This document shows positions 1 to 36,780 of a stretch of DNA of 64,000 bases, piece by piece. Below the pieces are notes generated by a model, which was given only the letters and a program-made list of their open reading frames with translations, did not search any database and was not told the origin of the DNA. Source of the stretch: Sphaerolaimus hirsutus. Taxonomy: Eukaryota; Nematoda; Chromadorea; Monhysterida; Sphaerolaimidae. The stretch spans positions 3,166,529 to 3,230,528 of the forward strand of contig OZ038451.1 of assembly GCA_964036195.1 (NCBI GenBank), given 5' to 3'. Each line of letters opens with the position of its first letter. The first letter of the stretch is position 1. Both the position numbers and the translations under genes were made by a program.

Positions 1-4
1 TAAG

Positions 5-150
5 ATATTGGTTGGAAAGTGGTGCAGTTGAGTGGGCACCAGACATGATTGGACCAGCTGTTTGGACTGCAACTCATGCAATGGCCTATTATCATGGAAG
101 GATATACTCTATTGCGGGATGGACTGGTGCATCTAGTGGTGATTCTAGTG
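5..150 (+). CDS. Kelch-repeat exon (copy A)
   Basis: This is an internal exon of a kelch-repeat protein, a beta-propeller that usually binds substrates of Cullin-3 ubiquitin ligases or actin. It opens after an AG at 3-4 and reads Y-W-L-E-S-G-A-V-E-W-A-P, then AMAYYHGRIYSIAGWTG, a typical kelch strand order (small residues, aromatic pair, G-R-I-Y, G-W in place of the usual G-G). It ends at a GTTAGT donor (151) after one base of a codon. That base joins the AT at the start of the exon at 973 to make Asp, so phases agree. Which kelch protein this is cannot be told. Copy B (19953-20098) has Thr where this copy has Ile in the P-D-M-I-G-P stretch. Confidence 0.75.
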
Positions 151-972
151 GTTAGTGCATAGAAATGCAATGAATGTGCTCACAACAGTTGGCGAGTGAG
201 GATTAGTGATGGGAAATGCTAAGGGTGCCATGTGGTGTCATTAGTAACATATTGGCAGGCACCAAGGGAACTATTGAACATATTTAGGCATTTAAAACCA
301 ATTTCATCATTACACTCCATAGTTGTTAAAACATATTTACATTTACTCAATAAATACATATGCTCAACTAGTGCATAAATACACTCACATTTCCTCTTGA
401 AAAATTCCATTACTCACCATCTTGCATACCTTTTGATAGTATGTATTTCAGATAGGCTTTTATATAGGCTTTTTCAAGGCATAAATGGAACAAAGGGATA
501 AACAAGCATAGGGAAATAGAGAACAATATCGAATGTTTACCTAAAAGTTGATTTAAATCTGGCGACCCAGTGTCAAGTTTTTCAAAATCTAAAGCATTGA
601 TCTAAATTGCTGCATCCTGAGTTGTCAAAGTACCAAACTTTTTTCAAAGTTTATGTAAACGTAAAGTATTTATTTTTTACTCACCCCTTGAGTACAGAAA
701 ACGTAAAGTAATTTCTTTTCACTTTTACTTATGAGTAAACATGAGTAAACGTACTTTTCCCTGCAGAAAACGTCAACGTGAGTACTTTTGAGTACTTCAC
801 TTATTTTCATAACCTGTAAAAGTTGGCACCACAGCAGCACTGGTGATATTTTGACAAAAATTGCACCAGCACCACTGAAAATAACAAATGGTGCCCCACC
901 AGGGATCATTGTATTTCTCACAAATGGAAAGGTCATAAATATTAGTTTGCTCTTATTGGAAATTTTTTACAG
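151..972 (+). repeat. Intron with degenerate CATAGTTGTTAAAAC-type element
   Basis: This intron joins two kelch exons. It contains a decayed member of the family whose ends read CATAGTTGTTAAAACGTATT (here from 318, CATAGTTGTTAAAACATATT) and whose interior repeats ACGTAAA and GAGTAC words (about 610-790). I could not fix the right end or a target duplication. A short stretch at about 820-950 (around TTGCACCAGCACCACTG) shows no feature I recognise. Confidence 0.5.
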
Positions 973-1136
973 ATGTGACATCACTGGATGTAAATTTGCA
1001 AGCATGGCGTACTGAACCTTCCCTCAAACAAGGCAGACACCAAGTTGGTGGGGGTGCAGAAGTGTATCATGATAAACTGTTTATCTGCGGCGATTGGTAT
1101 GCTGATGGAGCTCAGGGCAACACATGTGAAATGTTG
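973..1136 (+). CDS. Kelch-repeat exon (copy A), next exon
   Basis: The exon opens after TTTTTTACAG and completes the Asp codon left by the exon ending at 150. It reads V-T-S-L-D-V-N-L-Q-A-W-R-T-E, then HQVGGGAEVYHDKLFICG and D-W-Y-A-D-G. The R-H-Q-V-G-G-G-A-E-V-Y-H-D-K-L-F-I-C-G pattern is a kelch blade. The likely donor is GTTTGA at 1137 in phase 0; frame TGA follows at once if unspliced. The exon at 6996 expects phase 1, so at least one intervening exon is missing or the donor is misjudged. Copy B is 20921-21084, of the same length. Confidence 0.7.
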
Positions 1137-1315
1137 GTTTGATAGCAGATTTGTTAAAATATCGGTATTTTTGGAAAGCGTAACTGTACACCTTTTTCCA
1201 ATTTAAATTGTTGATGATAAACATGTTTAATGTACCTGGGTAAATGTAAATAATGTGTTGTACTCCAAGTATTTATAAAAAAGTTACAACACTGGAGAAC
1301 AACTACCGTATTTCC

Positions 1316-1724
1316 TCGAAATACCCCCCCTTGAATTGACCCCCCTTGAATTGACCCCCCTCGAAATACCCCCAGGTGTTTTTTTAGCTGGGGAAAAAAT
1401 ACACCCCCTCGAAAAAACCCCCATCTGAAATGATGTACATCATGTATGCAATGTACATTATGTATATATTGGTTGCAGTTTGCATCGCAGCTACACATAT
1501 AAATACTAGTTTGTGTAGCGATGCACGTTGATATGTCCAAATACACCCTACTTGAACACGTTTATTACCAGTTTTGGGTACATAAAACCATACTCCTTAC
1601 TATGAATTTCGTGAAAATTTCTGACGAAATAATAAACCCCCCTCGAAAAAGCCCTCCCTTCGAATTACCCTCTCAAAATTTCCTCTCTGAAAAAACCCCC
1701 TGGGGGTATTTCGAGGTAATACGG
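1316..1724. mobile_element. CCGTATT/TCGAA element, TA duplication
   Basis: The terminal inverted repeats are CCGTATTTCCTCGAAATACC on the left and its inverse on the right, with TA at both flanks. The interior is runs of C joined by TCGAAATA or TTGAATTA words, with a non-repetitive middle (ATGTACATCATGTATGCAAT). It is present in both copies (B 21254-21660), so it predates the duplication or haplotype split. No coding capacity. Confidence 0.8.
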
Positions 1725-1832
1725 TACCTGGGTAAATGTAAGTAATGTGTTGTACTCCAAGTATTTACCTATACAAACGTTACACCACTGCAGAACAACC
1801 TGTTTTTTTTACATTTTGGAGATTTCCACATG

Positions 1833-2229
1833 CCGTATTACATCGAAATACACACAGCAAATTATTATTATTTATTATTTTGCCAGAAAAGTTTAGGGGG
1901 TGGGGGGTATTTCGAGGGGGGGTCTATTATTTCGCCAGAAATTTTTCGAAATTCCCCATTCTCAGACGTAGAAAAATCAAACAGTTACATAGATGTATGT
2001 GTGTTTGTAGGCATATATAGCTGTATATACACATAAGCCCTTCCCTAATGTCACTCAATAATTGGTTTTAACCTGTGTTCTGCATTGTACACATCACAAA
2101 CTGCGGTATTTGTCATGTAAATACGTTTGCTTTTTAGCGGTGTATTTCGAGGGGGGTTTATTATTTCCTCAGCCCAATTTTGGGGGGTGTATTTCGAGGG
2201 GGGGGGGGGGTTAATTCGAGGTAACACGG
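1833..2229. mobile_element. CCGTATT/TCGAA element with decayed left flank
   Basis: Left end CCGTATTACATCGAAATAC follows TG rather than TA, so one flank has mutated; the right end CGAGGTAACACGG is followed by TA. The interior has G-rich TCGAGGGG runs and the middle segment shared by the family (CAGACGTAGAAAAATC, GGCATATATA). Present in both copies (B about 21769-22158). Confidence 0.7.
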
Positions 2230-2325
2230 TACTATTATTCATGAAATAATTATTATTTGTGTATGTCATAAAGACAAAAATTCTAAATTCCGCTCAGCTA
2301 TCTATCTATCACGGATAGATAGATA

Positions 2326-3189
2326 CCGTATTACCTCGAAATACCCCCAGGGGGTTTATTATTTCGCCAGCAAAATTTTAGGGGGGTAATTCGAGGGGGG
2401 GTTTATTCGAGGGGGGGGTCTATTATTTCGCCAGAAATTTTCGGGAATTCCCCATACGCAGATGTAGAAAAATCGAACAATCACATAGATTTATATGTGT
2501 TTATAGGCATATATTACTGTATACCGTATTACCTCGAAATACCCCCAGGGGGTTTATTATTTCGCCAGCAAAATTTGAGGGGGGATAATTCGAGGGGGGG
2601 TTTATTCGAGGGGGGGGTCTATTTTTTCGCCAGAAATTTTCGGAAATTCCCTATACTCAGACGTACGAAAATCATACAATTACATCGATGTAGATGTGTT
2701 TATAAGCATATATAACTGTTTATATACATAAACCCTTCCCTAACATCACTCAATCATCGGTTTTAACGTGTGTTCTGCATTGTACAGATCACAAACTGCG
2801 GTATTTGTCATGCACGTTCTCTTTACACTCAATCTTAGGGGGGGGGTATTTCGAGGGGGGGGGGGTTATTATTTCCTCAGCCGAATTTTAGGGGGGGTAT
2901 TTCGAGGGGGGGGGGTTAATTCAAGGGGGGGGGGGGTTAATTCGAGGTAATACGGTATACACAAAAACCCTTCCCTGACGTCACTTAATCATCAGTTTTA
3001 ACGTGTGTTTTGCATAGTACAGATCACAAACTGCGGTATTTGTCATGTACGTTCACGTTACACTCAATTTTAGGGGGGGTATTTCGAGGGGGGGTTTATT
3101 ATTTCCTCAGCCGAAATTTAGGGGGGTTATTTCGAGGGGCGGGGGGGGGGGGGGTTAATTCAAGGGGGGGAAAATTCGAGGTAATACGG
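2326..3189. mobile_element. CCGTATT/TCGAA element with a second copy nested inside
   Basis: The outer element starts CCGTATTACCTCGAAATACC after TA and ends CGAGGTAATACGG before TA (3190-3191). In copy B it is only 375 bases (22256-22630), because B lacks the inner copy at 2524-2955. The outer element lies beside a small inverted repeat, TATCTATCTATC / GATAGATAGATA. Confidence 0.85.
2524..2955. mobile_element. Nested CCGTATT/TCGAA element unique to copy A
   Basis: It is flanked by TA on both sides. Copy B reads ACTGTATATACAC straight through at about 22446-22458, which is this sequence with the element and one TA removed. This empty site shows the boundaries and the TA duplication directly. 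Confidence 0.9.
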
Positions 3190-3239
3190 TAGCTGACTGT
3201 TTTAGGCAAAATTTTCAACTACAATCCCCTGAAGTGCAA

Positions 3240-6130
3240 TCCCTTTCAGTGAATTTTCAACTACAATCCCCCTATTATACCCAACGATGGCAATAACACA
3301 CATATTAAATACAGAAACTCATTGAGTTTCCGTGTTTTTGTTTAATACAGAAACTCGGAAACTCAACAATTTTGAAAAACACACAAAACTCAAATGAGTT
3401 CTTTTTTGGAGAACACGGAAATATGGAAACACAGAAATGTTCTTCGAGTTTTTTATCCAAGCAATTGAAGGCACAAGATTTGAACTGAACAATGTGTGTA
3501 TGAGATACAAGATATGCATGTATGTGTAGTGTGTAAATATGTACATAGTATCCAAGTTTAACGATGAAATAAGTATCCAAAAAATAATAGTGTCCGCATC
3601 TCCCGGTGGTTTCGACAGTATTAGGGACTGTGATCAAAGTGTTGAGGAGTGTCCACCAGGGTCTGCTAGCTCACACAATTGAGCTGAGTGCTCCTCACCT
3701 CCCAAGCTGCCAAAGGTATTGGTCACCCATTTGGAACTACCTCCAGTGAACTAATGGAAATTTTCCAATACACAACAAAACGTATGCAAAACCAATATTT
3801 GATAAGAAAACCACTGTTTCAACAGTAAAATGCTGTAAAATGCAATTTTTTGTAAAACAACTTGAGTTTTTACCAAAAAAAAAACTTGAGTTTTTTCAAA
3901 AAAACTTGAGTTTTTACCAAAAACTCACATTTTTTCAAAAAACACAGAAATAAAACAGAAACTCAAGTTTTTTTCGTGAAAAAAACTCAAAACACAGGTA
4001 TTCATTTTTGAAAAACTCAAAATACAGAAAGTGTTTTTATTTTGAGAACTCACCCATCGTTGATTATACCAGCTACCATTGGAACGATTTGTGATGAGCA
4101 ACGATGAAAAAAACACAGAAATTGAACAGAGAAACTCATTGAGTTTCTGTGTTTTTGTTTTACACATAAACACAGAAACTCAAAAATTTTGAAAAACTCA
4201 AAACTCAAATGAGTTTTTTTATTGCAGAACACAGAATCACAGAAACACGGAAAAACAGAAAAGTGTTTCCATGTTTCTGAGTTTTTTCATTGGACTGGAG
4301 GAATACTGTGCTGTGTTTAACTGAACAAAATAAGAAAATGTGCACAAGTGCATATCAACAGATCGGTCCAAATTTAATAACAAGTAACAAAATACAACCT
4401 TAGTAACAATATAGCACCTGGTCATTATGACAATGATTGGAATTGTTATTGTAACTGACTGATTGACTCACACCCACCAGGTCACTCCACAGAGTTGAAA
4501 GCTACCCCCAAAGTTGCCAAAAGCATAACCTGGTCACTTTTAAGGTATTTTTACAACTTTAGTGGGTCAAAAGATGAGTTAGTCAAGTGAAACCAGTAGC
4601 GTAAAATGTCATCAAAAATACAAAATGTTCAAACCTTTTGTTTACATTTTGCATGACTGTTCACTTTGTTCAGCGCAATTTTACAGGGTCCCTGGACATA
4701 CATAAACAAATTTGTAATGAGAACACCACTGTTTTTGCATTTAACCACTGTATTTGAGTAAAAACTTGCATTTTATGAAAAAACTCAAGTTTTAATGAAA
4801 AAACTTGAGTTTTTACAAAAAAAAACACAGAAAAAATAACAGAGTTACTCAAGTTTTTTTCATGAAAAAAACTATAAAAAAACTCTCAAAAAGGTATTCA
4901 TTAGGTAAACACAGAAAGTGTTTTTTTCTGGAGAACTTACCCATTGTTGGTGACAAGTTATACCCAACGATGGCAAAAACACACATATCAAATACGGAAA
5001 CTCATTGAGTTTCCGTGTTTTTGTTTCACACAGAAACACGGAAACTCAACAATTTTGAAAAACATGGAAACTCAAATGAGTTCTTTTTTGGAGAACACAG
5101 AAAATACGGAAATGTTCTTTGAGTTTTTTATTCAAGCAATTGAAGGCACAAGATTTGAACTGTACAATGTGTGTATGTGCATACATAAGGTATGCATGTA
5201 CCGTATTACCTCGAATTATCCCCCCCCCTTGAATTAACCCCCCCCTCGAATTAACCCCACCCCCCCCCCTCAAAATGGGCTGGGGAAATAATAAACCCCC
5301 CCCTCGAATACCCCCCAAATACCGTGTAGACAGCATGTACACAACAAATACCACAGTGTGTGAACTGTATTATGCAGAACACACGTTAAAACTGATGACT
5401 GAGTGATGTTAGGGAAGGGTTTATGTGTATATACAGTAGTATATGCCTATAAACACTCATACGCCTCTGACAATGTTGTATTTTTCTACGTCTGAGTACG
5501 GGAAATTTTGTAAAATTTCTGGCGAAATAATCGACCCCCCCCCCCTCGAGTTAACCCCCCCTCAAAATTTGCTGGCGAAATAATAAACCCCCATGGCGGT
5601 ATTTCGAGGTAATACGGTATGTATAGTGTGTAAATATGTGCATAGTATCCAAGTTTAACTATGAAATAAGTATCCAAAAAATAACGGTGTCCACAGCTCC
5701 TGGTGGGTTCGACAATATTATGGACTGTGATCAAAGTGTTGAGGAGTGTCCATCAGGGTCTGCTAGCTCACACAATTGAGCTGAGGGCTCCTCACCTCCC
5801 AAGCTGTCAAAGGTATTGGTCACCCATTTGGAACTACCTCCAGTGAACTAATGAAAATTTTCCAATACATGACAAAATGTATGCAAAACCAATATTTGAT
5901 AAGAAAACCACTGTTTCAAAAGTAAAATGCTGTAAAATGCAACTTTTCGTAAAACAATTCGAGTTTTTACCAAAACAAAACTTGAGTTTTTACTAAAAAA
6001 CTCAAGTTTAAAAAAACACATAAATAAAACACAGTAACTCAGGGTTTTTTTTGTGAAAAAAACTGAAAACACAGATATTCATTTTTGAAAAACTCAAAAT
6101 ACAGAAAGTGTTTTTATTTTATGAACTCAT
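3240..6130. repeat. Twice-duplicated AACTCAAA / AACACAGAAAC word region
   Basis: Two paralogous units (about 3260-4130 and 4960-6130) share long stretches, for example GTCTGCTAGCTCACACAATT at about 3661 and 5758. Both are loaded with AACTCAAA, AACTTGAG and AACACAGAAAC words and with CAACGATGG ends. The intact element at 11844-12992 shows that this family has CAACGATGG termini and 8-base target duplications. The same region is in copy B (22650-28060) and, inverted and partial, at 45900-46620. I see no gene here. Confidence 0.75.
5201..5617. mobile_element. CCGTATT/TCGAA element inside the second AACTCAAA unit
   Basis: It is flanked by TA. The first paralogous unit reads GCATGTATGTGTAGTGTG uninterrupted at about 3516, so the local duplication itself supplies an empty site. 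Present in copy B at 27074-27483. Confidence 0.85.
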
Positions 6131-6143
6131 CCATCGTTGGTAA

Positions 6144-6759
6144 CGTCGGCAGACGTATCGCCCTACAAACATTTGCGTCAATCTCGCCAGTGGAGAGTGC
6201 ATGATGGCATTAGGTATTGTGACACAATATTTTAACGATTGGAATGGATCGGGTCACGTATGAAAACTTGGCCCTTATCCCAGTTACCAGTTGCGTATTA
6301 TGCAAATGAGAGTGAAAACTGAAAGTTAGCTGAAAATCGTTAAAATTTGCTTCGCTTTGCCAATTTCCACCTTCATAATCGCTATTTTTTAGATACATGG
6401 TTATATAGCTATTGTGAGCCTATTTTATTCATATTAATAGCGGATTTCGAAATTTTGGCTGGCTGCCAAGTTCTCTTCTGTTGGAATGGAGCCAACGAAT
6501 GAAAAATAAAATAAAAACAAAAATGGTAGTTTGAACAGTAAAACGGTAGTTTGAACGGTCAAATTCTTTACGAGCAACGTTGAAAATGTAGATAACTAGG
6601 GTGCAGCACGCACGGGCGCAGCGAAACGTCAATTTTTTTTAAAATATGATTTTCTTTTTCAATTTCTAGCGTCCGCGTGGGATCCAAGTTTCGTTGTTCG
6701 CTCTATTCACGAGCGAATTCTAACTCTCCGATTTTGTAGGGTGAAATGTCGGCCGACTT
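6144..6759. mobile_element. 616-base insertion with TAA duplication, copy A only
   Basis: Copy B reads CATCGTTGGTAATACCCAC (about 28062-28080). Copy A reads CATCGTTGG-TAA-insert-TAA-TACCCAC. The ends are CGTCGGCAGACG and GTCGGCCGACTT, which share an inverted GTCGGC core only. A three-base TAA duplication is what PIF/Harbinger elements make; the family assignment is an inference. No coding frame stands out. Confidence 0.65.
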
Positions 6760-6995
6760 TAATACCCACATTTTTGCTCAAAATTACTAACTTTCATGCC
6801 TTTTAATCGTTTTCCAGCTTAAAAATCACGAATTCATGGCGCTTATTGCCTATTTTTAGCTATTTGATATACTTAATGTGATTATATACCTATTTTTAGC
6901 TATTTGATATACTTAATGTGATTATATACCCATTTTTAGCTATTGTTCACCCACCCGTAATGAGTTTCCTCCTTTTACCTTCTACCCTTTTTCAG

Positions 6996-7549
6996 CTGTC
7001 TTTCTCTCTGGAGGAGTGATTTGCTATCCATCCAACAACCCGGTGTCAAAATCTAGAATACCTAGTAAAAACAAGTGTAGAATTCTACCATTCAATCCGT
7101 ACAGCCTACAGCCACTGCCATGCCACAGGTTCGACACAATCTCGTGGGAATTCGCACCTGGCATACTGCCAAGAAACATGTACGCTGGTGCGCTGACTAC
7201 AATCGACGACTCGCTGTACTATATTGGCGGGGCAACTACGACACTCCATTTGGATGAAATTGCCAAATACAATGCGAGCAGTGGCACGTGGGCCAATGTC
7301 CCTGGTGCCAGTCCCAGACCCTGTAAAATGCCCTGTCAAATGTCAAATGTCATGCAAAGTGTCAAATGTCATGGAAAATGCCCGGCAAAATGACATATTT
7401 ACGTGCGTTTGCCATTTTGTGGGGCATTTTACGTGACGTTGGACACTTTGCATGTCATTTGACACCTTACAGGGCATTTTACAATGTCTGGGACTGCCCC
7501 CAGAGCGGCTCGTCGGACCGCTGAGCAAGCCAGGTGTTATACATGTTTG
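6996..7549 (+). pseudogene. Kelch-repeat exon interrupted by a palindromic element (copy A)
   Basis: After CTACCCTTTTTCAG the frame reads V-F-L-S-G-G-V-I-C-Y, then C-H-R-F-D-T-I-S-W-E-F-A-P-G, NMYAGALTTIDDSLYYIGG and E-I-A-K-Y-N, a kelch blade. At the T-W-A-N-V-P codons it is split by a roughly 195-base palindromic insertion (about 7304-7497). The frame resumes as P-E-R-L-V-G-P-L-S and ends V-I-H-V before a GTGATG donor at 7550. Two uninterrupted relatives on the - strand (46702-46976, 59728-59955) read straight through V-P-E-R-L. Unless the insertion is spliced or removed, it adds stops, so the exon is probably broken. Copy B has the same break at the same place. Confidence 0.75.
7304..7497. 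mobile_element. Palindromic GTCCCAGACC..TGTAAAATG element in kelch exon
   Basis: The left arm GTCCCAGACCCTGTAAAATG pairs with the right arm CATTTTACAATGTCTGGGAC. Further inward, ATGTCATGCAAAGTGTC pairs with GACACTTTGCATGTCAT. Boundaries are inferred from the uninterrupted kelch relatives and are good to a few bases. Similar hairpins lie at 38403-38580, about 61490-61590 and 63640-63835. Confidence 0.75.
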
Positions 7550-7655
7550 GTGATGCAGCTGAGGCATTGAACATAGTGGCCAGTGGGCCTGGAAAAATAC
7601 ACTGTCGTGAATGGCATTGCGATAATCTCGGGAGATTACACAGGGAATAGTAAAT

Positions 7656-7976
7656 ACCTTACTGATAACTCGCTGCCAGCTAGGAGACAACAAGCTGACA
7701 AGCAGTTGTTTACACTTGGCAGCGAGCTGTCAGCGTGCAGCAGCGAGCTGGCAGCGAGTTGTCAGCGTGTGGCAGCGAGCTGGCAGCTAGCTGTAAAAGG
7801 CTGCAGTGTAGTTGGCAGCGAGCTGTCAGCTTGCTGAAAGCACATATTTAATAAACACTTTACAGCATTTAAAGAACATGTCAGTGAGCTGGCAGTGAGG
7901 TGCAAAAAAGTTGTCAGCTAGCAAGACCCGATTTTTGCTGCTTGGCATATGAAAAGGCAGCGAGTTGTCAGCAAGG
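7656..7976. repeat. TGTCAGCGAGCTGGCAGC word array
   Basis: The ends are TACCTTACTGATAACTCGCT and AGCGAGTTGTCAGCAAGGTA, imperfect inverses. The interior repeats (T/G)GTCAGC and GAGCTGGCAGC words. Copy B (about 29003-29155) has a contracted version missing most of the array. Confidence 0.65.
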
Positions 7977-8313
7977 TACCTTTCCCTGTGAAAATTAAAA
8001 TGATTTTTTTAAATTTAATCACTGCAAAGTCAAATATCTTATTCGTGATTTGATCTTATAGCCAATATCTCATTTGTGTTTTCCCTTCATTTTTTTCTCA
8101 AAACTGTCAATAGTTTAATATTTTAGTGAAATATTTATAGTTTAATTAGACGATGGTTGTGTAACCGGAAACTACTGTGTCTCAACAACTGCTATAAGAA
8201 CTGTAAATTAAATGTCTTAATTTACTTGAGACACTGTTAAAGACAGTGTTGAAACTAGGCAAATCATTTCTTAATGCATCAGTTGCTTTTTGTGTTGTAC
8301 CTAAATATTTATG
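7977..8313. other. Unannotated AT-rich stretch
   Basis: This stretch is shared with copy B (about 29158-29485) and is AT-rich. It contains ATTTCTTAATGCATCAG. No exon, element end or repeat that I can support. Confidence 0.5.
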
Positions 8314-8315
8314 TA

Positions 8316-8750
8316 CCGTGTTACCTCAAAATACCCCCAGGGGTTTTATTATTTCGCCAGCAAAATTTGAGGGGGGGGATAATTCGAGGGGGGGGTTTAT
8401 TCGAGGGGGGGGGGTCTGTTATTTTGCCAGAAATTTTCAGAAATTCCCCATACTCAGACGTAGAACAATCAAACAATTACATAGATGTATATGTGTTTAT
8501 AGGCATATATAACTGTATCTACACATAAACCATTCCCTAACATCACTAAATCATCATTTTTTTACGTGTGTTCCGCATTGTACAGATGACAAACTGCGGT
8601 ATTTGTCATGTACGTTCTCTTTACACTCAATTTTAGGGGGGGTATTTCGAGGGGGGGGGGGTTATTATTTCCTCAGCCGAATTTAGGGGGGGGTATTTCG
8701 AGGAGGGGGGGGGTTAATTCAAGGGGGGGGGGTAATTCGAGGTAATACGG
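8316..8750. mobile_element. CCGTATT/TCGAA element unique to copy A
   Basis: It is flanked by TA at 8314-8315 and 8751-8752. Copy B has AAATATTTATGTAGTTCAT with a single TA at about 29485, a clean empty site. The left end has drifted (CCGTGTTACCTCAAAATACC). Confidence 0.92.
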
Positions 8751-8819
8751 TAGTTCATTTATCTGTTGTTGTGCTGAAGTGATTTGTAACAGTGTTACCA
8801 GAATCCCAGATTCAATGTA

Positions 8820-9268
8820 CCGTATTTCCTCGAAATACCCCCCCCCCCCCTCGAAAAACCCCCCCTCGAAATACCCCCCTCAAAATGGACATTATGAACT
8901 TATAAACCCCCCCCCTCGAAATACCCCCCCCCAAATTTAGTGTATAGAGAACGTGCATGACAAAGCCTGCGGTTTTGTCATCCCGGCAATGCAGAACACA
9001 CGTTAAAAACGATGACTCTGTTATGTGAGAACAGTGTTTGTACGTCTACACACTTATAAATGTCGTTAGAGTCTTATAAATGGCGATCTTTGTTGCATTT
9101 TTCGACGTCTGCGTACGTTTCAGACGACATTTTAGTACTGGGATTTCAAAAAATTTCTGGCGAAATCATAAACCTCCCCCCCTCGAAATACCCCCCCTCG
9201 TTTAACCCCCCCTCAAAATTCTCACTCTGAAAAAATAAACCCCCCGGGGGTATTTCGAGGAAATACGG
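8820..9268. mobile_element. CCGTATTTCC/TCGAA element unique to copy A
   Basis: TA flanks are at 8818-8819 and 9269-9270. Copy B reads ATTCAATGTACAATTTTTG at about 29545-29563 with one TA. Ends CCGTATTTCCTCGAAATACC and its inverse. It stands only 67 bases from the element ending at 8750. Confidence 0.9.
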
Positions 9269-9600
9269 TATAATTTTTTGTGTTTCTTTTCCATCATGTT
9301 ATTGATAGATGTGATTTTTGCAAACATTAAATATAGGTATACGCGGCGGACATCACACTTGTATAACAACCTACCATAACCAATCTGAATAATGGACCAA
9401 ACATTATACAGTTTTTATCATCATTTTATTTCGTTTTACTATGGAATACTTTACTTCAAAAATACTCCTCATGTGGCTAATTACGAAATTTATCACAATA
9501 TTTTATTTATTAAATTAAAGTAGGATTCAGCAAATACTTTGCGGCCCGCCGAGTATACCTTTTTATGTTTTTACTAAAAACTTTATCCAAATACATTCTA

Positions 9601-10641: not shown

Positions 10642-10789
10642 TATGTTCTTATGTTGTAAACTGAAACGTCAGGGGCCAGTTCCGCAAATTGAGAAGTGAT
10701 AAGTTTAATGGCAAATGCGAAGTGAAGTGCCAAAAGCGATTTTCATATTTTGGACTTGTCGACTTTTAGAATTGGACGCCTCATTTGTA

Positions 10790-11102: not shown

Positions 11103-11104
11103 TA

Positions 11105-11815: not shown

Positions 11816-11843
11816 CCCCTGCAGTCCCATGAAGACCCAGTAC

Positions 11844-12992: not shown

Positions 12993-13000
12993 CCCAGTAC

Positions 13001-26450: not shown

Positions 26451-26458
26451 AGTGAAAC

Positions 26459-28075
26459 CAGTAGCGTAAAATGTCATCAAAAATACAAAATGTTCAAACC
26501 TTTTTTTTACATTTTGCATGACTGTTCACTTTGTTCAGCGCAATTTTACAGGGTCCCTGGACATGCATAAACAAATTTGTAATGTGAACACCACTGTTTT
26601 TGCATTTAACCACTGTATTTGAGTAAAAACATGCATTTTATGAAAAAACTCAAGTTTTAATGAAAAAACTTGAGTTTTTACAAAAAAAACACAGAAATAA
26701 TAACAGAGTTACTCAAGTTTTTTTTCATGAAAAAACTTTAAAAAAACTCTCAAAAAGGTATTCATTTTGGAAAAATTCAAAACACAGAAAGTGTTTTTTT
26801 CTGGAGAACTTACCCATCGTTGGTGACGAGTTATACCCAACGATGGCAAAAACACACATATCAAATACGGAAACTCATTGAGTTTCCGTGTTTTTGTTTC
26901 ACACAGAAACACGGAAACTCAACAATTTTGAAAAACATAGAAACTCAAATGAGTTCTTTTTTGGAGAACACAGAAAATACGGAAATGTTCTTTGAGTTTT
27001 TTATTCAAGCAATTGAAGGCACAAGATTTGAACTGAACAATGTGTGTATGTGCATACATAAGGTATGCATGTACCGTATTACCTCGAATTATCCCCCCTT
27101 GAATTAACCCCCCCCCCTCGAATTAACCCCCCCCCCTCAAAATGGGCTGGGGGAATAATAAACCCCCATTCGAATACCCCCCAAATACCGTGTAAACAGC
27201 ATGTACACAACAAATACCACAGTGTGTGAACTGTATTATGCAGAACACACGTTAAAACTGATGACTGAGTGATGTTAGGGAAGGGTTTATGTGTATATAC
27301 AGTAGTATATGCCTATAAACACTCATACGCCTCTGACAATGTTGTATTTTTCTACGTCTGAGTACGGGAAGTTTTGTAAAATTTCTGGCGAAATAATCGA
27401 CCCCCCCCCCTCGAATTAACCCCCCCCTCAAAATTTGCTGGCGAAATAATAAACCCCCATGGGGGTATTTCGAGGTAATACGGTATGTATAGTGTGTAAA
27501 TATGTGCATAGTATCCAAGTTTAACTATGAAATAAGTATCCAAAAAACAACGGTGTCCACAGCTCCTGGTGGGTTCGACAATATTAGGGACTGTGATCAA
27601 AGTGTTGAGGAGTGTCCACCAGGGTCTGCTAGCTCACACAATTGAGCTGAGGGCTCCTCACCTCCCAAGCTGCCAAAGGTATTGGTCACCCATTTGGAAC
27701 TACCTCCAGTGAACTAATGGAAATTTTCCAATACACAACAAAACGTATGCAAAACCAATATTTGATAAGAAAACCACTGTTTCAACAGTAAAATGCTGTA
27801 AAATGCAATTTTTTGTAAAACAACTTGAGTTTTTACCAAAAAAAACTTGAGTTTTTTCAAAAAAAAACTTGAGTTTTTATCAAAAAACTTGAGTTTTTAT
27901 TGAAAAACTTGAGTTTTTACCAAAAAACTCAAGTTTAAAAAAACACATAAATAAAACACAGTAACTCAGGGGGTTTTTTTCGTGAAAAAAAACTGAAAAC
28001 ACAGATATTCATTTTTGAAAAACTCAAAATACAGAAAGTGTTTTTATTTTATGAACTCATCCATCGTTGGTAATA
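26459..28075. repeat. AACTCAAA word region, copy B right unit
   Basis: Counterpart of 4594-6135 with the TA element 27074-27483 inside. Ends at CATCGTTGGTAA, the empty site of 6144-6759. No gene. Confidence 0.7.
27074..27483. mobile_element. CCGTATT/TCGAA element (copy B of 5201-5617)
   Basis: Same site as copy A, TA flanks, right end CGAGGTAATACGG. Confidence 0.82.
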
Positions 28076-28139
28076 CCCACATTTTTGCTCAAAATTACTA
28101 ACTTTCATGCCTTGCAATCGTTTTCCACCTTAAAAATCA

Positions 28140-28300
28140 CGAATTCATGGCGCTTATTGCCTATTTTTAGCTATTTGATATACTTAATGTGATTATATAC
28201 CTATTTTTAGCTATTTGATATACTTAATGTGATTATATACCTATTTTTAGCTATTTGATATACTTAATGTGATTATATACCCATTTTTAGCTATTGTTCA
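28140..28300 (+). repeat. Tandem repeat of about 42 bases, copy number differs between blocks
   Basis: The unit beginning CCTATTTTTAGCTATTTGAT is repeated about three and a half times here. In copy A (about 6849-6945) there is one unit fewer. It lies in the intron just before the kelch exon. Confidence 0.8.
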
Positions 28301-28346
28301 CCTACCCGTAATGAGTTTCCTCCTTTTACCGTCTACCCTTTTTCAG

Positions 28347-28900
28347 CTGTCTTTCTCTCTGGTGGAGTGATTTGCTATCCATCCAACAACCCGGTGTCAA
28401 AATCTAGAATACCTAGTAAAAACAAGTGTAGAATTCTACCATTCAATCCGTACAGCCTACAGCCACTGCCATGCCACAGGTTCGACACAATCTCGTGGGA
28501 ATTCGCACCTGGCATACTGCCAAGAAACATGTACGCTGGTGCGCTGACTACAATCGACGACTCGCTGTACTATATTGGCGGGGCAACTACGACACTCCAT
28601 TTGGATGAAATTGCCAAATACAATGCGAGCAGTGGCACGTGGGCCAATGTCCCTGGTGCCAGTCCCAGACCCTGTAAAATGCCCTGTCAAATGTCAAATG
28701 TCATGCAAAGTGTCAAATGTCATGGAAAATGCCCGGCAAAATGACATATTTACGTGCGTTTGCCATTTTGTGGGGCATTTTACGTGACGTTGGACACTTT
28801 GCATGTCATTTGACACCTTACAGGGCATTTTACAAGGTCTGGGACTGCCCCCAGAGCGGCTCGTCGGACCGCTGAGCAAGCCAGGTGTTATACATGTTTG
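28347..28900 (+). pseudogene. Kelch-repeat exon interrupted by a palindromic element (copy B)
   Basis: Counterpart of 6996-7549 with the same acceptor, the same V-F-L-S-G-G opening and the same palindromic insertion (about 28655-28848) at the V-P codons. The element therefore entered before the two blocks diverged. The coding part before the insertion is unchanged between copies. Confidence 0.75.
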
Positions 28901-29159
28901 GTGATGCAGGTGAGGCATTGAACATAGTGGCCAGTGGGCCTGGAGAAATACACTGTCGTGAATGGCATTGCGATAATCTTGGGAGATTACACAGGGAATA
29001 GTAAATACCTTACTGACAACTCGCTGCCAGCTAGGAGACAACAAGCTTACAAGAACATGTCAGCGAGCTGGCAGTGAGGTGGAAAAAAGTTGTCAGCTAG
29101 CAAGGCCTGATTTTTGCTGCTTGCCAAGTGAACTGGCAGCGAGTTGTCAGCAAGGTACC

Positions 29160-29617
29160 CTGTGAAAATTAAATGATTTTTGAAAATTTAACCACTGCAA
29201 AGTCAAATATCTTATTCGTGATTTGATCTTATAGCCAATATCTCATTTGTGTTTTCCCTTCATTTTTTTCTCAAAACTGTCAATAGTTTAATATTTTAGT
29301 GAAATATTTATAGTTTAATTAGACGATGGTTGTGTAACCAGAAACTACTGTGTCTCAACAACTGCTATAAGAACTGTAAATTAAATGTCTTAATTTACTT
29401 GACACTTTTAAAGACAGTGTTGAAACTAGACAAATCATTTCTTAATGCATCAGTTGCTTTTTGTGTTGTACCTAAATATTTATGTAGTTCATTTATATGT
29501 TGTTGTGCTGAAGTGATTTGTAACAGATTTCCCAGAATCCCAGATTCAATGTACAATTTTTGTGTTTCTTTTCCATCATGTTATTGATAGATGTGATTTT
29601 TGCAAACATTAAATATA
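29160..29617. other. Shared AT-rich stretch holding two empty TA sites
   Basis: Aligns with copy A 7980-9333. It contains the unoccupied targets of the elements at 8316-8750 (about 29485) and 8820-9268 (29552-29553). No gene. Confidence 0.6.
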
Positions 29618-30057
29618 CCGAAAATGCTCTAATAATACAACAGGTCTCCAATAATACGACATCTCCAATAGTGCGACAGGTTTGGGCACGTTGTGTGAAA
29701 ATAATCCGACACTCTCCAATAATGCGACACTCTTCAATAGTGCGACACCTGAGAAATAAAAAGAAAAAGCGCCGTAACGATGTGGCAATATGCGGAAGCC
29801 GCGGATTCGGCGCTTTTGGACAAAGCGTCGGCTGGCGGCAGTTCACAAGAGTCGCTCAGCAGTTCACAAGAGTTGCACGGCAGTTCGCAAGGGCGCCAGC
29901 CGCCTCACAACCGCCACTATTCACTGGCCGAGAAGTTGTTGATTCGACGAAAACAATAATGCGACACTCTCTAATAATGCGACATCTCCAATAGTACGAC
30001 ACCTAAAAATGTGCTGAAAAAAATAGTACGACTGTCGTATTATTAGAGCATTTACGG
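29618..30057. mobile_element. CCG(T)AAATGCTCTAATAATACGAC element, TA duplication, copy B only
   Basis: Ends CCGAAAATGCTCTAATAATA and TATTATTAGAGCATTTACGG, with TA at 29616-29617 and 30058-30059. Copy A reads TTAAATATAGGTATACG at 9328-9344, empty. Subterminal words CTCTAATAATGCGACA and CTCCAATAGTGCGACA are repeated at both ends, mirroring the plan of the CCGTATT/TCGAA class. The middle has a 59-codon frame (29780-29959). Confidence 0.9.
29780..29959 (+). CDS. 59-codon open frame inside a TA element, unknown
   Basis: This is the only GC-rich, non-word part of the element. The frame begins M-W-Q-Y-A-E-A-A-D-S and contains three S-S-Q repeats (G-S-S-Q-E-S, S-S-S-Q-E-L, G-S-S-Q-G-R). It ends HYSLAEKLLIRRKQ at TAA. 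The last part faintly resembles the start of CENP-B/pogo helix-turn-helix regions, and pogo-type elements also duplicate TA; that link is a guess. It could equally be a chance frame or a piece of a longer deleted transposase. Confidence 0.3.
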   Translation: MWQYAEAADSALLDKASAGGSSQESLSSSQELHGSSQGRQPPHNRHYSLAEKLLIRRKQ

Positions 30058-30059
30058 TA

Positions 30060-30523
30060 GGTATACGCGGCGGACATCACACTTACCGTATTTCCTCGAT
30101 TAACAATGTAAATACGTGATGTATTTAGTGGTGCCAGTTTCCATCGCACACATATAGGTACATCAATTTATGTACAGATGTACGTCTGTATGCGCCGATA
30201 TGTCCCATTACTTACCTTTATTACCGGTTTTGTGTATGAAAAGCGTATTCTTTACTATGAATTTCACGAAAATTTCTGACGAAAAAATAAACCCCCCTCG
30301 AATAAGCCCCCTCCCCTCGAAAACCCCCCTCAAAATTTCCACTCTGAAAAAATAAGTTTTTACTATGGAATACTTTACTTCAAAAATACTCCTCATGTGG
30401 CTAATTACAAAATTTATCACAATATTTTTTTATACAATTATAGTAGGATTCTGCACATACTTTGCGTTCCGCCGAGTATACCTTTTTATGTTTTTACTAA
30501 AAACTTTATCCAAATACATTCTA
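30060..30523. repeat. Remnant of CCGTATT/TCGAA element and flanks
   Basis: At 30086 CCGTATTTCCTCGATTAAC opens a left end whose right end is missing; C-run words lie at 30290-30335. A matching inverted remnant is at 45700-45778. The rest aligns with copy A 9430-9600. Confidence 0.55.
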
Positions 30524-30784
30524 CCATATTTCCTTGAAATACCCCCACCCCCCTCGAGTTAACCCCCTAAAAATGGGCACTATGAATTTGTCATCTGGTA
30601 AATGCATAACAGACGTTCAAAACACTTACTGTGTTACGTTAGAACATCGTTTATACCATCTACATCCTTATATAAGGCTGTAAAAGCTTATAAATGGTGG
30701 TTATTGTTGCATTTTTCACGTTTTTCTTACAAAATTTTCACTCTGAAAAAATAAACCCCCCGGGGGTAATTGGAGGAAATACGG
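30524..30784. mobile_element. CCGTATT/TCGAA element, empty of the hAT-like insertion
   Basis: Counterpart of 9601-10641. It reads CATCCTTATATAAGGCTG where A has the 774-base CAGAGTTG element. Confidence 0.85.
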
Positions 30785-31299
30785 TATGTTCTTATGTTGT
30801 AAACTGAAACGTCAGGGGCCAGTTCCGCAAATTGAGAAGTGATAAGTTAAATGGCAAATGCGAAGTGAAGTGCCAAAAGCGATTTTAATATTTTGAACTT
30901 GTCAACTTTTAGAATTGTACGCCTCATTTGTATTTTCAGCAGTGTTCTAACTGAATGAAATGAAATGACTTTGCTCTGTGCAATTTTACAATGACAAACA
31001 GAAATCTGATGCCAGTTCCGCAAATTGAGAAGTGAGAAGTAAAATGGCAAAAGCGAAGTAAAAGGCAATATTGAAGTGAAATCGCAAGTAAACTCGGGGC
31101 ATGAAACGAGTCAGTGATTCGGCCCTTGGTTACCAATGAGGCATGTTTTTTAATTCGAATTTGAATGGATGGATTCCATTCGGTTCACGATACATTTGAT
31201 TCAATCCGACTTTTTATGCGAGAACGATAGGAGTTTAATACGCAAATCGTTATTGAAAATTGGATTGTAAGGTCTTAGGTCGGGTCTTATCGTCGCAGC
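30785..31299. other. Unique AT-rich stretch with empty fold-back site
   Basis: Contains the single TA (30931-30932) occupied in copy A by 10790-11102. A GCCAGTTCCGCAAATTGAGA motif occurs twice (about 30817 and 31012). No gene. Confidence 0.5.
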
Positions 31300-31650
31300 G
31301 AAGAAATAAACATCACTAATCCAACTGCAAAAATGGAATCTACATGTTGTCCCGATAATTTTAAGTGTCGAATGATCCAAATCGACCCAGAAATGGGCAA
31401 GTTATTAAGCTTGAAAGTCAATGTGCAGATCATCTGTGCAAAATGACCACCTTTTTATAGACACCCATTATCTCGGGACTGGGGAATTTTTCGAGCGAAC
31501 AAAAACAGTTCGCTATAGCCCAGACCCTAAACCCCAACATACTAGAAGGGCACAAAATTCGGCCAATGTACAACAAAATGGGACGCAGGAATGTGCGTTT
31601 CTATGAGATTTCAAAAAATATAAGAAACTTAGTTTACAGCCTGATACTAC
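31300..31650. repeat. Solo arm of the TTAGGTTGTAAAC fold-back family
   Basis: Matches the right arm of 33231-34430 (TAGACACCCATTATCTCGGG, GCCCAGACCCTAAACCCCAA) and ends AACTTAGTTTACAGCCTGA. Left arm absent. Confidence 0.7.
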
Positions 31651-32383
31651 ATGGTAGTACAAAATGCTGTCGGTAGACAATATGCTGTTAATCATATGTC
31701 ATTGTGAATGAAAAGGTTTAACAACACTCTGCTTAATATCTACTCTCAATGGTTTAAACACTTTGAAATATTGATTAAATCATACTTAAAGTTGAGAGAT
31801 TTGATGAGATTTTGTTGAACTGCAAGAGATTTTCTCAGAGATTTAAGGATATTTTCGAAAATGACCCAAGAGATTTAATTATATTGTTTTCTTGAGAGAT
31901 TTTCTGAGATAATATTTAATTATATTTTCTCAAAATCAGTCGTTTTTTCAATGCTATACGTGATAGACAGTTCATAGAATAAATAAATTCATAAATAGAG
32001 TTCATTCAACATTTGATACAAAAATATCACAAAATTAATGGACCGAGGCCACTAGATAAATCACAGCGTCCGCTGATATTTTTTAAAGGCACAATTCTGG
32101 CACTTTCTGTACCTTCTATTGGAGAGTTTACCCTTCTATTCATTTTATGGCCCAAATTAAGTCGAAAAAGTGTACGTTCTATTTGAGATGCCCTTATATT
32201 GGAGACCTGACCTTTTATTAGAAGAAATACGGTTAATAAAAAGAGAAATCTAAAAATGCCAAAAAAAATCTGAAAAAAATAAAAAATTCGGAAAATGAGA
32301 AAATGAAAATTACATTACTTCAAAAATACTCCGTATGTGCGCGTGTGTGTCCGATTGAAAGTTCGGTGCTCGCTGCTCTACAG

Positions 32384-32747
32384 CATAGGCGGCGCAAGGT
32401 TCCAATTTGCGCTTGTGACATTCACATTGGCCAAAATTTCACCTTGTGACACTTTTTTATCAGAGCTCTTACATGAATTTGGCAGCTAGCCAAAAACTTT
32501 GAAATCGCTAAAAATACATATAAAATTGGCTAAAAATAGGTATATAACCATGTATAAAGTTGAAAACAGTGATTATAAAGGTGAAATGGAGCAAATTTCA
32601 ATGATTTTGAGCTAATTTTGAGCATTCGCTCTCATTATTACAATACATGCTTGTGAATGTCACAATGTGACAGCGAAATTTCTGCTTGTGACACCAAAAA
32701 TCTTGCTTGTGACATTCACAAGCGCACAAGCACTTACGCCGCCTATG
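32384..32747. mobile_element. hAT-like CATAGGCGGCGCAA element, copy B only
   Basis: Ends CATAGGCGGCGCAAGGTTCC and ACTTACGCCGCCTATG. The perfect duplication CTCTACAG is at 32376-32383 and 32748-32755. Copy A has the site once at 15672-15679, already used as the left duplication of the next element. Confidence 0.93.
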
Positions 32748-32755
32748 CTCTACAG

Positions 32756-34462
32756 TATACCTAGTTGTTAAAACGTCTTTACGTTTACTCAAATACTCGA
32801 TTACTGAGTAAAAACGTTAACGTATACTTTGAGAAAAGTAAGTGTACTCCCTTCGTACTGTATACTTTTTGAAAGTACTCGAGTACAGAAAACGTATTTC
32901 AGACGGTTTTGTTATAGGCTTTTTCAAGGGATAGATGGATTAAAAGGGAGACAAAAAGCGAAAAATAGAGGGAAAAATAGCTTTAAATGGCAAATAACAC
33001 AGGAACTAGCTAATTTGAAGATTAAAATAGTCAAAAAGGTAAAAAATTAGTGATTTTCAGTGAAAATTGTTGCAAAATACCTAAAAAAACATACTCACCT
33101 TTACGTTTCCTGGGCGGAAAAGTATTTTACCCATGTTTACTCATGAGTAAAAGGAAAAAAATTTACTTTACATTTTCTGTACTCGGGGCCCAGGGGGGAG
33201 TAAAAAATAAATACTTAACGTTTACATATATTAGGTTGTAAACTAATGAACTGTCATTTTTCGCCATCTCATACAAATATACATTTGTGCTTTCCATTGT
33301 GTTGTACGTTGACCGATTTTGATGCCATTTGAGTATGTTGTGGTTTGGGGTCTGGGCTATGATGAAATGTTTTTGTTTGCTTAAATAATCCCCCAGTCCC
33401 GAGATAAGGGGGGTCTATAAAGAGGTGGTCATTTGACGTGGCCAATATGCACATTGACTTTGAAGCTTAATAACTCAGCCATTTCTGGGCCGATTCGGAT
33501 CGTTCAACACTTAAAATAACCAGGACAATCCGCAGATTCAATTTTTGTGGTCGAGTTAGTGATGTCGTTATCCCGTATGCCGATTTGACCCGGTTTTTGA
33601 ACATGAAAAATAATCGTAATTATAATTTTTCAAGACGATTTTTTTGAAGTTGCTATCATATACTAGAGACAAAAATAATAAATCTGGCCCAAAAATTTTT
33701 TCAATATCTCTCTCCAGTCAAAAGTTTTATCACTTTAAACATTGGCCTCCCAACAATAAATAGAAAAATCTGCATGACGAGCAAATGCATGTGACTTCAG
33801 AAATCCATATCTCGGCCATTTCTCAGCCAATTTTCACCAATGCACACTTAAAATGATCAGAAAAACCTGTAAGTTTCATTTTTATGCTCAGGTTATCTGT
33901 ATTCATCGTTCTTGATTAGTTATTTACATGTATGGGAGGCGGAAGTTTAAAGTTCTATTACTTTTGATTGGAAAGAGATATTGAAATAATTTTTTTGGTA
34001 TATGAATCCCCATTGTCTAAAGTATATGATAGCATGTTTAGAAAAATTTATTTTTGGTGTTTAAAAACCGGGTCAAATCAGCATACGGGATTAAGACATC
34101 ACTAACTCGACCACAAAAATGGAATCTACTGGTTGTGCTGATCATTTTAAGTGTCGAACGATCCAAATTGGCCCAGAAATGGCTGAGTGAGTAAGGTTCA
34201 AAGTGAATGTGTAGATCGGCCATGCAAAATGACCACCTCTTTATAGACCCCCCTTATCTCGGGACTGGGGGATTATTCGAGGGAACAAAAACATTTCTTC
34301 ATAGCCCAGACCCCAAACCCCAACATACTCAAATGGCATCAAAATCGGTCAACGTACAAAAGAATGTGGGATGCACAAATGTATATTTGTATGAAATCGA
34401 AAAAAGACACTTCATTAGTTTACAACCTAATACTTTGAAAAAAGTTCAGTACTTTTAACTAC
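32756..34462. mobile_element. hAT-like CATAGTTGTTAAAAC element carrying a fold-back
   Basis: Counterpart of 15680-16171. The left end has picked up extra bases (TATACCTAGTTGTTAAAACG); the right end ACTTTTAACTACCCTG is followed by CTCTACAG. The 1200-base fold-back 33231-34430 sits inside. Confidence 0.78.
33231..34430. mobile_element. 1200-base fold-back element with TTAGGTTGTAAAC ends, TA duplication, copy B only
   Basis: Terminal repeats TTAGGTTGTAAACTAATGAA and its inverse; TA at 33229-33230 and 34431-34432. Copy A reads TTTACATATACTTTG at about 16128-16142, empty. The whole element folds: for example CCGAGATAAGGGGGGTCTAT (about 33398) pairs with ATAGACCCCCCTTATCTCGG (about 34243). The ends resemble mariner ends (TTAGGTTG, TA target), but the palindromic body has no transposase frame. 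Confidence 0.9.
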
Positions 34463-34688
34463 CCTGCTCTACAGCTGTTGAAAGCTTCCATAAAATTGAT
34501 ATTGGTCGGTAAAATTAGAATAAATCCTGTAGTTCAGGTGCCTCACCCGATTTCGAGTTTGAGCAGATTAAGACATCGAAATCCGCTCTCGCCATAAATC
34601 ATAGTCCGCGGCACTCGGCTGAAATGAAGTTTTTCTTTTTCACTGCCACAAATGGATTCAAATATAGATCGGTTCAAATATAATTGTA

Positions 34689-34815
34689 CCGTATTACCTC
34701 CAATATAAGGTATACCTCCAATATAAAGTACCCCCTTTTATAAGTTAGAGGGTAAAAAGCTCAGAAAAAATGACGAAATCAATAAAAGGTATACCTTACA
34801 TTGGAGGTAATACGG
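34689..34815. mobile_element. Small CCGTATTA / CAATATAA element (copy B)
   Basis: Counterpart of 17592-17700 with one extra internal word; a CCTCCAATATAAGGTATACC segment is present here and deleted in A. Confidence 0.65.
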
Positions 34816-35363
34816 CTCTTGACGCTAGCGACAAAGGAAAAAGCCATGGCGCTTCTGGCGGTTGGCGCTATTTTGCTCTGGCGCTATTGGCGATTAGCGC
34901 TTTTGGCGCTTGACGCCAGAGTTCAGGCACTTTTTACATCACTAGACAAAGCCCTTTCTAAATGGAAGTACGTGCCAGCCGCCACTTAACGTGTCACTTA
35001 ACAACACTTGACGTAAATATCACTTAACACTTTCTCGTTCAATGTCCACTTAAGGATTTAGATTCAAAACGCTACTGACTCGTGTAATTCCAATCTTATC
35101 TTCCATGAAAACATGTACACAGCAAACACGACTTGATTATGGTAAATATTAAGCCAGCAGGAATTATTTTGGTCCGCCCCGGCGACCGGTTATTTTTGAA
35201 TCCGCCCCGGCGATCGACTTAACATCTCTTTGATTGGATGGATGCTTATAGTTTATTAGACCCCCCCTCCCCCCCAGCGATGAAACACTTAAAAGCATTT
35301 TTTGTTTTGGTTATTATTATTATTATTATTACCAAATTATTTTGGTCTCACTGAAGGAAACAG
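34816..35363. other. GGCGC word cluster and unannotated stretch (copy B)
   Basis: 34830-34945 is the GGCGCT cluster (counterpart of 17703-17840). The remainder matches 17841-18222 and holds a short ATT microsatellite at about 35314-35331. Confidence 0.55.
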
Positions 35364-35512
35364 GCTTTTTAGATATGACATTGCAATCGCTGTGCTCAAT
35401 TTTACTGTTGGCAGTATGCCAGGTATTGCACATGGCAGATTTTGAAGAGTTGTCAGCTGAAACGTTCGACTTTTTAGAGACGCATGAACATGTAGCTGAC
35501 CAGTACAACAAG
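35364..35512 (+). CDS. BACK-like domain exon (copy B)
   Basis: Same exon as 18223-18371 with acceptor GGAAACAG and donor GTCAGT. Amino-acid differences are few (D for N before M-T-L, L for Q after Q-S, H for P and D-F for N-L near L-E-E-L/F-E-E-L), with no stops. Open frame with mild divergence is consistent with a working exon. No other BTB or kelch exon follows in this orientation before the guanylate cyclase exons begin. Confidence 0.55.
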
Positions 35513-35744
35513 GTCAGTTCTTTATGCCATGGGCTAAAAGTGTCATGGCGCTTCTTGTGCTTGGCGCCATTTTGTTGTGGCGCTATAGGCGCTTCCGTTT
35601 GGCGCCAACATGCTCAGGAAGAGCACCATGGCGCCATTTTTTACTTATCCCCTGAGTACAGAAAACGTAAAGTAAGTTTTTTCTTTAACTCATTAGTAAA
35701 TATGAGTAAAATAATTTTTGCCCTAGAAAACGTAAAAGTAACTA

Positions 35745-36168
35745 CCGTATTACCTCGAATTAACCCCCCCTTGAATTAACCCCCCCCCTCGAAATACCCC
35801 CCCCTAAATTTCGGCTGAGGAAATAATAAACCCCCCCCTCGAAATACCCCGCCTAAAATTGAGTGTAAGGTGAACGTACATGACAGATACCGCAGTTTGT
35901 GATCTGTACAATGCAGAACATACGTTAAAACTGATGATTGAGTGACGATAGGGAAGGGTTTTTGTGTATTTACAGTTATATATGCCTATAAACACATATA
36001 CATCTATGTAATTGTTTGATTTTTCTACGTCTGCGTATGGGGAATTTCCGAAATTTTCTGGCGAAATAATAGACCCCCCCCTCGAATAAACCCCCCCTCG
36101 AATTATCCCCCCCTCAAATTTTGCTGGCGAAATAATAAACCCCCTGGGGGTATTTCGAGGTAATACGG
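35745..36168. mobile_element. CCGTATT/TCGAA element
   Basis: TA at 35743-35744 and 36169-36170, left CCGTATTACCTCGAATTAAC, right CGAGGTAATACGG. It lies in a GGCGCCA / ACGTAAA cluster that differs from copy A. Confidence 0.85.
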
Positions 36169-36496
36169 TATTTTTTATACGAATTTTGCCCCAATTTTCA
36201 CTCAAAATCACTAATTTTCATACCTTTTTGACAATTTTTACCTTCAAATTCATTACCTAGTTCGTGTGTTTTGCACCTAGGTATTTTCAGCAATTTTTTC
36301 CCTTTTTTTCGCTTTTTTTCTCCTTTCCCCATCTATGTCTTGAAAAAGCCTATCTGAAATACGTTTTCTGTACTCGAGTACTTTAAAAAAGTATACGTAA
36401 AAGCTAGTACAGGTACTTTTTCCAAAGTATACGTAAACGTATTTACTCGAGTATACGTACTTTTTGAGTAAACGTAAATACGTATTAACGTTAACT

Positions 36497-36780
36497 ATGC
36501 ACTACACCAACAAAAAAAGCTACACGACACTTTTGGCAGTGGGCGCCATTGGCCTCGTTTGCGGTATTGCGCTCTCCTTCATTTTCAATGTTTCCGCAAC
36601 CCGCCCCTCCCCCCAGGACGCTCTGGGCAAGACGCGCATCCGGGTGGGCATGCTGCTGCCGGGGCCGGGCGCGCCCGCCTCCATGATGGACACCATGGCG
36701 TTCCCCACCAGCGCCGGCGCCGTCACCAAGGCGCTCGCAGACATCAAGCGCATGCGCCTGCTCGAACACTACCACATGGA
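36497..36780 (+). CDS. Receptor guanylate cyclase-like gene, exon 1 (membrane/signal segment and start of ANF-receptor domain)
   Basis: From ATG 36497 the frame reads M-H-Y-T-N-K-K-S-Y, then a hydrophobic run TLLAVGAIGLVCGIALSFIF (about residues 11-30, signal peptide or anchor). It continues N-V-S-A-T-R-P, then K-T-R-I-R-V-G-M-L-L-P-G, the opening beta strand of type I periplasmic-binding-like receptors. It ends L-L-E-H-Y-H-M at a GTCGGT donor (36781) with two bases over, which suits the next exon. Composition shifts sharply to GC-rich. The ATG itself lies in sequence matching the end of the CATAGTTGTTAAAAC transposon family (AACTATGC) and is ACG in copy A, so the true start may differ. Natriuretic-type guanylate cyclases are the best match; the ligand is unknown. 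Confidence 0.75.

What the first reader, a model, noticed from the sequence alone, without database searches (positions are those of the whole stretch)
1..36535. Two near-identical 17-19 kb blocks in series across a 200-N gap: real tandem duplication or stacked haplotypes
Blocks 1-18773 and 19949-36535 share order, orientation, exons and most transposons, but differ by at least eleven whole-element insertions with clean empty sites. The gap has the round size of a scaffolding placeholder, and copy A stops at the very point where copy B enters the guanylate cyclase gene. Allelic haplotypes of a highly heterozygous animal, joined in series, would look like this; so would a young tandem duplication. 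Every gene count in this region depends on the answer.
Basis: partly seen in the sequence, partly recalled or inferred. Interest (0 to 1): 0.85.

Follow-up and report, generated by a model that had tools for sequence, protein, structure and literature searches.

The report
Two haplotypes stacked across scaffold gap
A stretch of an animal chromosome appears twice in a row, most likely because the maternal and paternal versions of one region were both kept and joined end to end by the assembly software; it is probably an ordinary assembly error rather than a new duplication.

Summary
The repeat is real, but its left border was only the window edge. Homology starts at contig 2's first base (18974), which matches position -959, left of the window. 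It ends at contig 1's last base (18773), which matches 36535. So the end of one contig overlaps the start of the next, exactly to both tips, across a 200-N spacer.

Aligned columns are 97.4% identical; divergence rises from about 0.3% to about 5% along the block. A third, inverted copy ("C"), about 256 kb to the right, runs from left flank to receptor exons without a gap and has one block, not two. It is the outgroup: 180 sites AB|C, 27 A-private, 27 B-private. Relative to C, A and B are closer on the left than on the right (Fisher p 2e-5), as expected of recombining alleles.

Best reading: unpurged haplotype (heterotype) false duplication, 0.8. A true tandem copy with its junction lost in the gap is not excluded (0.13). 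Read depth would decide; none was available. Only 1 of 4 gaps seen has overlapping flanks. Genome-wide copy number was not tested (search machine down). "Guanylate cyclase" is unproven.

The parts
1..18773 (+). Block A: end of contig 1. The homologous stretch begins 959 bases left of the window and runs to the last base before the gap.
18774..18973 (.). Scaffolding spacer of exactly 200 N between contig 1 and contig 2.
   Evidence: Four 200-N gaps were seen in the fetched parts of this chromosome.
18974..36535 (+). Block B: start of contig 2, homologous to -959 to 18773.
6917..7390 (+). Kelch-like open frame in A (Kelch_6 E 1.8e-5, 25.0 bits, just below the curated cut-off of 25.3).
28268..28741 (+). 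The same Kelch-like open frame in B; 3 of 474 bases differ from A.
36497..45367 (+). Exon-like frames of a receptor with an ANF-receptor ligand-binding region; present once in contig 2 and once, inverted, in copy C. Only the frame at 38174-38365 has a Pfam match; the other borders are approximate.
24494..26450 (-). Element present in B only: inverted-repeat ends, 8-bp target duplication; contains a reverse-transcriptase-like frame at 25029-25985 (below Pfam cut-off).
8315..8751 (.). Element present in A only; empty site in both B and C, so inserted on the A lineage.
8821..9274 (.). Second A-only insert with empty site in both B and C.

Best explanation
The two blocks are the two haplotypes of one locus in a diploid, heterozygous animal. 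The assembler followed one haplotype into contig 1, which ends in block A, and the other into contig 2, which begins with block B. Mobile-element insertions leave only about 60% of the block alignable, so any purging of duplicates failed to trim the overlap, and a scaffolder set the two contigs in series with a 200-N spacer. Shown: exact tip-to-tip overlap, 200-N gap, a single block in outgroup copy C, A and B as sisters, uneven divergence. Inferred: allelism, failure of purging, type of scaffolder. Not testable here: half read depth.
For: Homology begins at contig 2's first base and ends at contig 1's last base, across exactly 200 N. Copy C spans left flank to receptor exons inside one contig with one block (no N in C2:3445529-3505418). 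Tree ((A,B),C) with equal private counts, 27 and 27, against 180 AB|C of 3,166 columns. Divergence is lowest at contig 2's start (2 of the first 750 columns) and about 5% over the last 2,750; Spearman 0.75, 45 windows; private to AB|C ratio 11:95 left against 43:85 right, Fisher p 2e-5. [quoted passage not shown]
Against: Only 1 of 4 gaps examined has overlapping flanks, so a systematic failure is not shown. Divergence does not fall again at A's right end, as a simple closed bubble would predict. The region has another duplicate, C, so real duplication happens here. A tandem pair whose junction is lost in the gap would give the same tip-to-tip overlap. No heterozygosity baseline, read depth or k-mer data were available.
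Confidence: 0.8

Rival explanations
1. A true tandem duplication. Unequal crossing-over made a second copy next to the first; the contigs broke at the junction, and whatever lay between A's end and B's start is lost in the gap.
For: Same order and orientation in series. The gap size is a placeholder, so the missing part can be any length. A third copy C shows that this stretch has been duplicated before. Gene conversion between tandem copies could give the uneven divergence.
Against: Both homology borders fall exactly on contig tips and no junction is sequenced; C has one block; a single duplication event does not give a split of such different depth along the block without conversion.
Confidence: 0.13
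2. A and B are a tandem duplication on one haplotype, and C is the other haplotype of the same region, which lacks it and was placed elsewhere in inverted orientation.
For: C has one block and is colinear with window -21652 to 45702; its homology still holds where its contig ends at a 200-N gap.
Against: It needs about 6.5% allelic divergence. C's low-copy homology stops at 45702 although 13.8 kb more of its contig and 26 kb more of contig 2 were compared; beyond that only short colinear matches occur, mostly repeat-like.
Confidence: 0.05
3. Homotype duplication: the same molecule assembled twice because of read errors.
For: The first 3,500 aligned columns differ at only 25 sites.
Against: 12 one-sided insertions or deletions over 60 bp, 8 of 11 examined with inverted-repeat ends, and about 5% substitutions on the right are not read errors.
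Confidence: 0.02

Closest known systems
Heterotype (haplotype) false duplication at contig ends, as described by the Vertebrate Genomes Project (PMC8081667, PMC9516828; passages read)
   Same: Two diverged homologous copies on one scaffold, adjacent, in one orientation, separated by an assembly gap, overlapping end to end; lowest divergence at one border.
   Different: Half depth, discordant or missing spanning reads and single-copy k-mers are untested. A-B divergence (2.6% of aligned columns, about 40% of each block unalignable) is above the 1.6% heterozygosity given as the highest among the genomes of PMC8081667.
Tandem segmental duplication (general knowledge)
   Same: Head-to-tail order, same orientation; another duplicate of the region exists on the chromosome.
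   Different: No sequenced junction; both homology borders lie exactly at contig tips; the outgroup copy has one block.

Membership tests
Heterotype false duplication | Homologous, diverged pair on the same scaffold | tested here: met
   97.4% identity over 11,324 columns, plus whole-element differences.
Heterotype false duplication | Assembly gap between the pair | tested here: met
   200 N at 18774-18973.
Heterotype false duplication | End-to-end overlap at the contig boundary | tested here: met
   18974 matches -959 and 18773 matches 36535. A tandem pair with a lost junction would also meet this.
Heterotype false duplication | Haploid read depth over both copies | not testable with these tools
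   No reads available.
Heterotype false duplication | Discordant or missing spanning reads; single-copy haplotype-specific k-mers | not testable with these tools
   No reads available.
True tandem duplication | A contiguous sequenced junction between the copies | tested here: not met
   Only N between 18773 and 18974.
True tandem duplication | Full diploid depth over both copies | not testable with these tools
   No reads available.
   PF01094, E 1.6e-7, 38174-38365. Shared with class C receptors.
   No motif found by recalled patterns in the 244-kb region or 60 kb around C; exon borders could split motifs; a family search did not complete.

The most novel reading that the evidence does not exclude
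A, B and C are three real copies on one chromosome: an older inverted duplication of a stretch corresponding to about 67 kb of this region and carrying a receptor gene, followed by a recent tandem duplication of the block upstream of that gene, partly overwritten since by gene conversion.
Probability: 0.13. Interest if true: 0.3.

Novelty: not a real feature. Interest (0 to 1): 0.12.

Why it matters
If the blocks are alleles, about 17.6 kb of this chromosome is counted twice, with one Kelch-like frame and several mobile elements over-counted; the true locus is left flank, one block, then the receptor gene, without a gap. The exact tip-to-tip overlap of contigs across a placeholder gap is a cheap flag that needs no reads and could be applied to every such gap of this assembly.

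Tried and rejected
Homotype (read-error) duplication: rejected because of 12 one-sided insertions or deletions over 60 bp, 8 of 11 examined with inverted-repeat ends.

C as the direct continuation of A's haplotype: rejected. A and C differ where they overlap by about 4-11% in blocks of more than 60 columns compared three ways, except one block of 96 columns at 3%.

Overlap as a common feature of gaps: not found. Of four gaps (window coordinates -80193, 18774, 71974 and chromosome position 3505419) only 18774 has overlapping flanks. Flanks read were 20-40 kb per side for three of them; at 3505419 about 7.9 kb on the right.

Naming the animal: not achieved. Two searches for the assembly span found Alvinella pompejana (367.4 Mb in all, 348.5 Mb in 17 pseudo-chromosomes; passages read), which does not match 348,482,957 bases in all, and a clearwing moth at 348.4 Mb with 31 chromosomes (listing and abstract only), which does not fit contigs of 28-34 Mb (C1, C2, C3, C4, C9; inference).

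Whole-genome copy number, unplaced haplotigs and a heterozygosity baseline: planned, not done, because the genome search was answered only.

Full report
CLAIM. Blocks 1-18773 and 19949-36535 are near-identical, in series across a 200-N gap: alleles stacked by the assembler, or a young tandem duplication.

CHECK OF THE OBSERVATION. The window is C2:3166529-3230528 of a genome of 348,482,957 bases in 762 contigs. It holds one N run, 18774-18973, exactly 200 bases. I fetched 100 kb to the left and 80 kb to the right. At the other end, contig 1's last base, 18773, aligns to 36535. The overlap is a suffix of contig 1 against a prefix of contig 2, exact to both tips. The chained alignment has 16 pieces, 11,324 columns and 97.4% identity without gaps, and covers 57% of A and 64% of B. 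There are 12 one-sided differences over 60 bp and 3 further places. Of 11 one-sided inserts whose ends were examined, 8 have terminal inverted repeats and 3 do not; two show target duplications of 8 and 4 bp. Two A inserts (8315-8751 and 8821-9274) have empty sites in both B and C and so arose on the A lineage; for most of the 13 sites put to C, one or both flanks have no readable match in the expected place.

A THIRD COPY. Both the receptor exons of contig 2 and the flank in contig 1 match, inverted, a stretch at C2:3459378-3505418, about 256 kb to the right of B's end. It is colinear with window -21652 to 45702. No N was seen in C2:3445529-3505418, and homology still holds where its contig ends at another 200-N gap, 3505419-3505618. 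It has one block between left flank and receptor exons, so left flank, one block, receptor gene is the likely ancestral order. In 3,166 columns where the three pairwise alignments agree, 2,923 are identical, 180 group A with B, 27 are A-private, 27 B-private and 9 all different. The tree is ((A,B),C). C differs from contig 1 by 6.5% on average, without a trend along the sequence (59 windows, rho 0.15, p 0.26; variance/mean 2.8). C is either a true inverted paralogous segment, which I favour, or a misplaced, very divergent haplotig. Its low-copy homology to contig 2 stops at 45702 although 13.8 kb more of its contig was compared; further short colinear matches exist out to 68498 and look repeat-like, which is not proven.

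DIVERGENCE ALONG THE BLOCK. A and B differ at 298 of 11,288 columns: 2 of the first 750, 25 of the first 3,500, 141 of the last 2,750 counted in full windows. Spearman against position is 0.75 over 45 windows, p 3.5e-9; variance/mean is 5.2. Measured against C, private to AB|C counts are 11:95 left of position 8000 and 43:85 right of it, Fisher p 2e-5. The split of A and B is therefore younger on the left than on the right. For alleles this is ordinary, since recombination gives each stretch its own age. For tandem copies it needs gene conversion.

INTERPRETATION. The tip-to-tip overlap alone does not prove haplotypes: a tandem pair whose junction was lost in the gap would look the same. It is the combination that favours stacked haplotypes: exact tips, placeholder gap, one block in the outgroup, uneven age, and lowest divergence at contig 2's start. 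In the published description of heterotype false duplications a gap between the pair is a main characteristic, and borders of homozygous and heterozygous sequence are prone to them (PMC9516828, passages read); [quoted passage not shown] With about 60% of the block alignable, failure of an alignment-based purge is plausible (inference; whether this assembly was purged is unknown). One published assembly scaffolded with YaHS has 54 gaps of 200 N (PMC12134992, passages read); that this assembly used YaHS is inference.

AGAINST THIS READING. Only 1 of 4 gaps examined has overlapping flanks. Divergence does not fall again at A's right end. The stretch has another duplicate, C. There was no read depth, no k-mer data and no heterozygosity baseline. 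The whole-genome search answered once and not in the 30 later calls.

GENES. I found one Kelch-like open frame in the block (A 6917-7390, B 28268-28741; 3 of 474 bases differ; Kelch_6 just below its cut-off). C has the Kelch-like part too, with two stops in the frame upstream of it. The gene that A just reaches is a receptor with an ANF-receptor ligand-binding region (exon 38174-38365, E 1.6e-7). Nothing found here makes it a guanylate cyclase. The ATG at 36497 in B is ACG in A and C.

VERDICT. Probably an ordinary assembly artefact (0.8), of low interest. A true tandem duplication stays possible (0.13) until reads are mapped.

Noticed in passing
C2:3459378-3505418 (loci L027, L028, L029, L030, L032); matches window -21652 to 45702: A third, inverted copy of the left flank, one block and the receptor exons, about 256 kb to the right, 6.5% diverged from contig 1 on average; some receptor exon frames are closely conserved in protein, the exon 1 frame has small gaps and ACG instead of ATG.
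   Followed up: partly
C15:14820755-14821536: A more distant relative of the receptor exons: 116 bp at 91% and 130 bp at 86% match window 37364-37479 and 38225-38354.
   Followed up: no
window coordinates -61757 to -49195 and 112176 to 124717 (outside the window): Two copies of a 12.5-kb element, 95.7% alike, each with terminal direct repeats of about 1.29 kb (100% and 99.8% identical): looks like a recently active LTR element.
   Followed up: no
24494-26450: B-only element with inverted-repeat ends and an 8-bp target duplication that contains a reverse-transcriptase-like frame (RVT_1 E 9.4e-5, below cut-off); an odd mix of DNA-transposon ends and a retroelement fragment, with a relative at -90170 to -88583.
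   Followed up: partly
46749-46928 and 59775-59954, minus strand: Further Kelch-like frames, 69% identical in protein to the one in A and B: a dispersed Kelch-like exon.
   Followed up: no
51049-52623: Minisatellite of 39-bp units, about 40 copies, with further arrays at 52652-52878 and 53569-53795.
   Followed up: no
2523-2956, 8315-8751, 16378-17568 and elsewhere: Small elements with ends like ACCGTATTACCTCGAA and C-run/TCGAA repeats inside are abundant here and cause several of the A/B length differences.
   Followed up: partly
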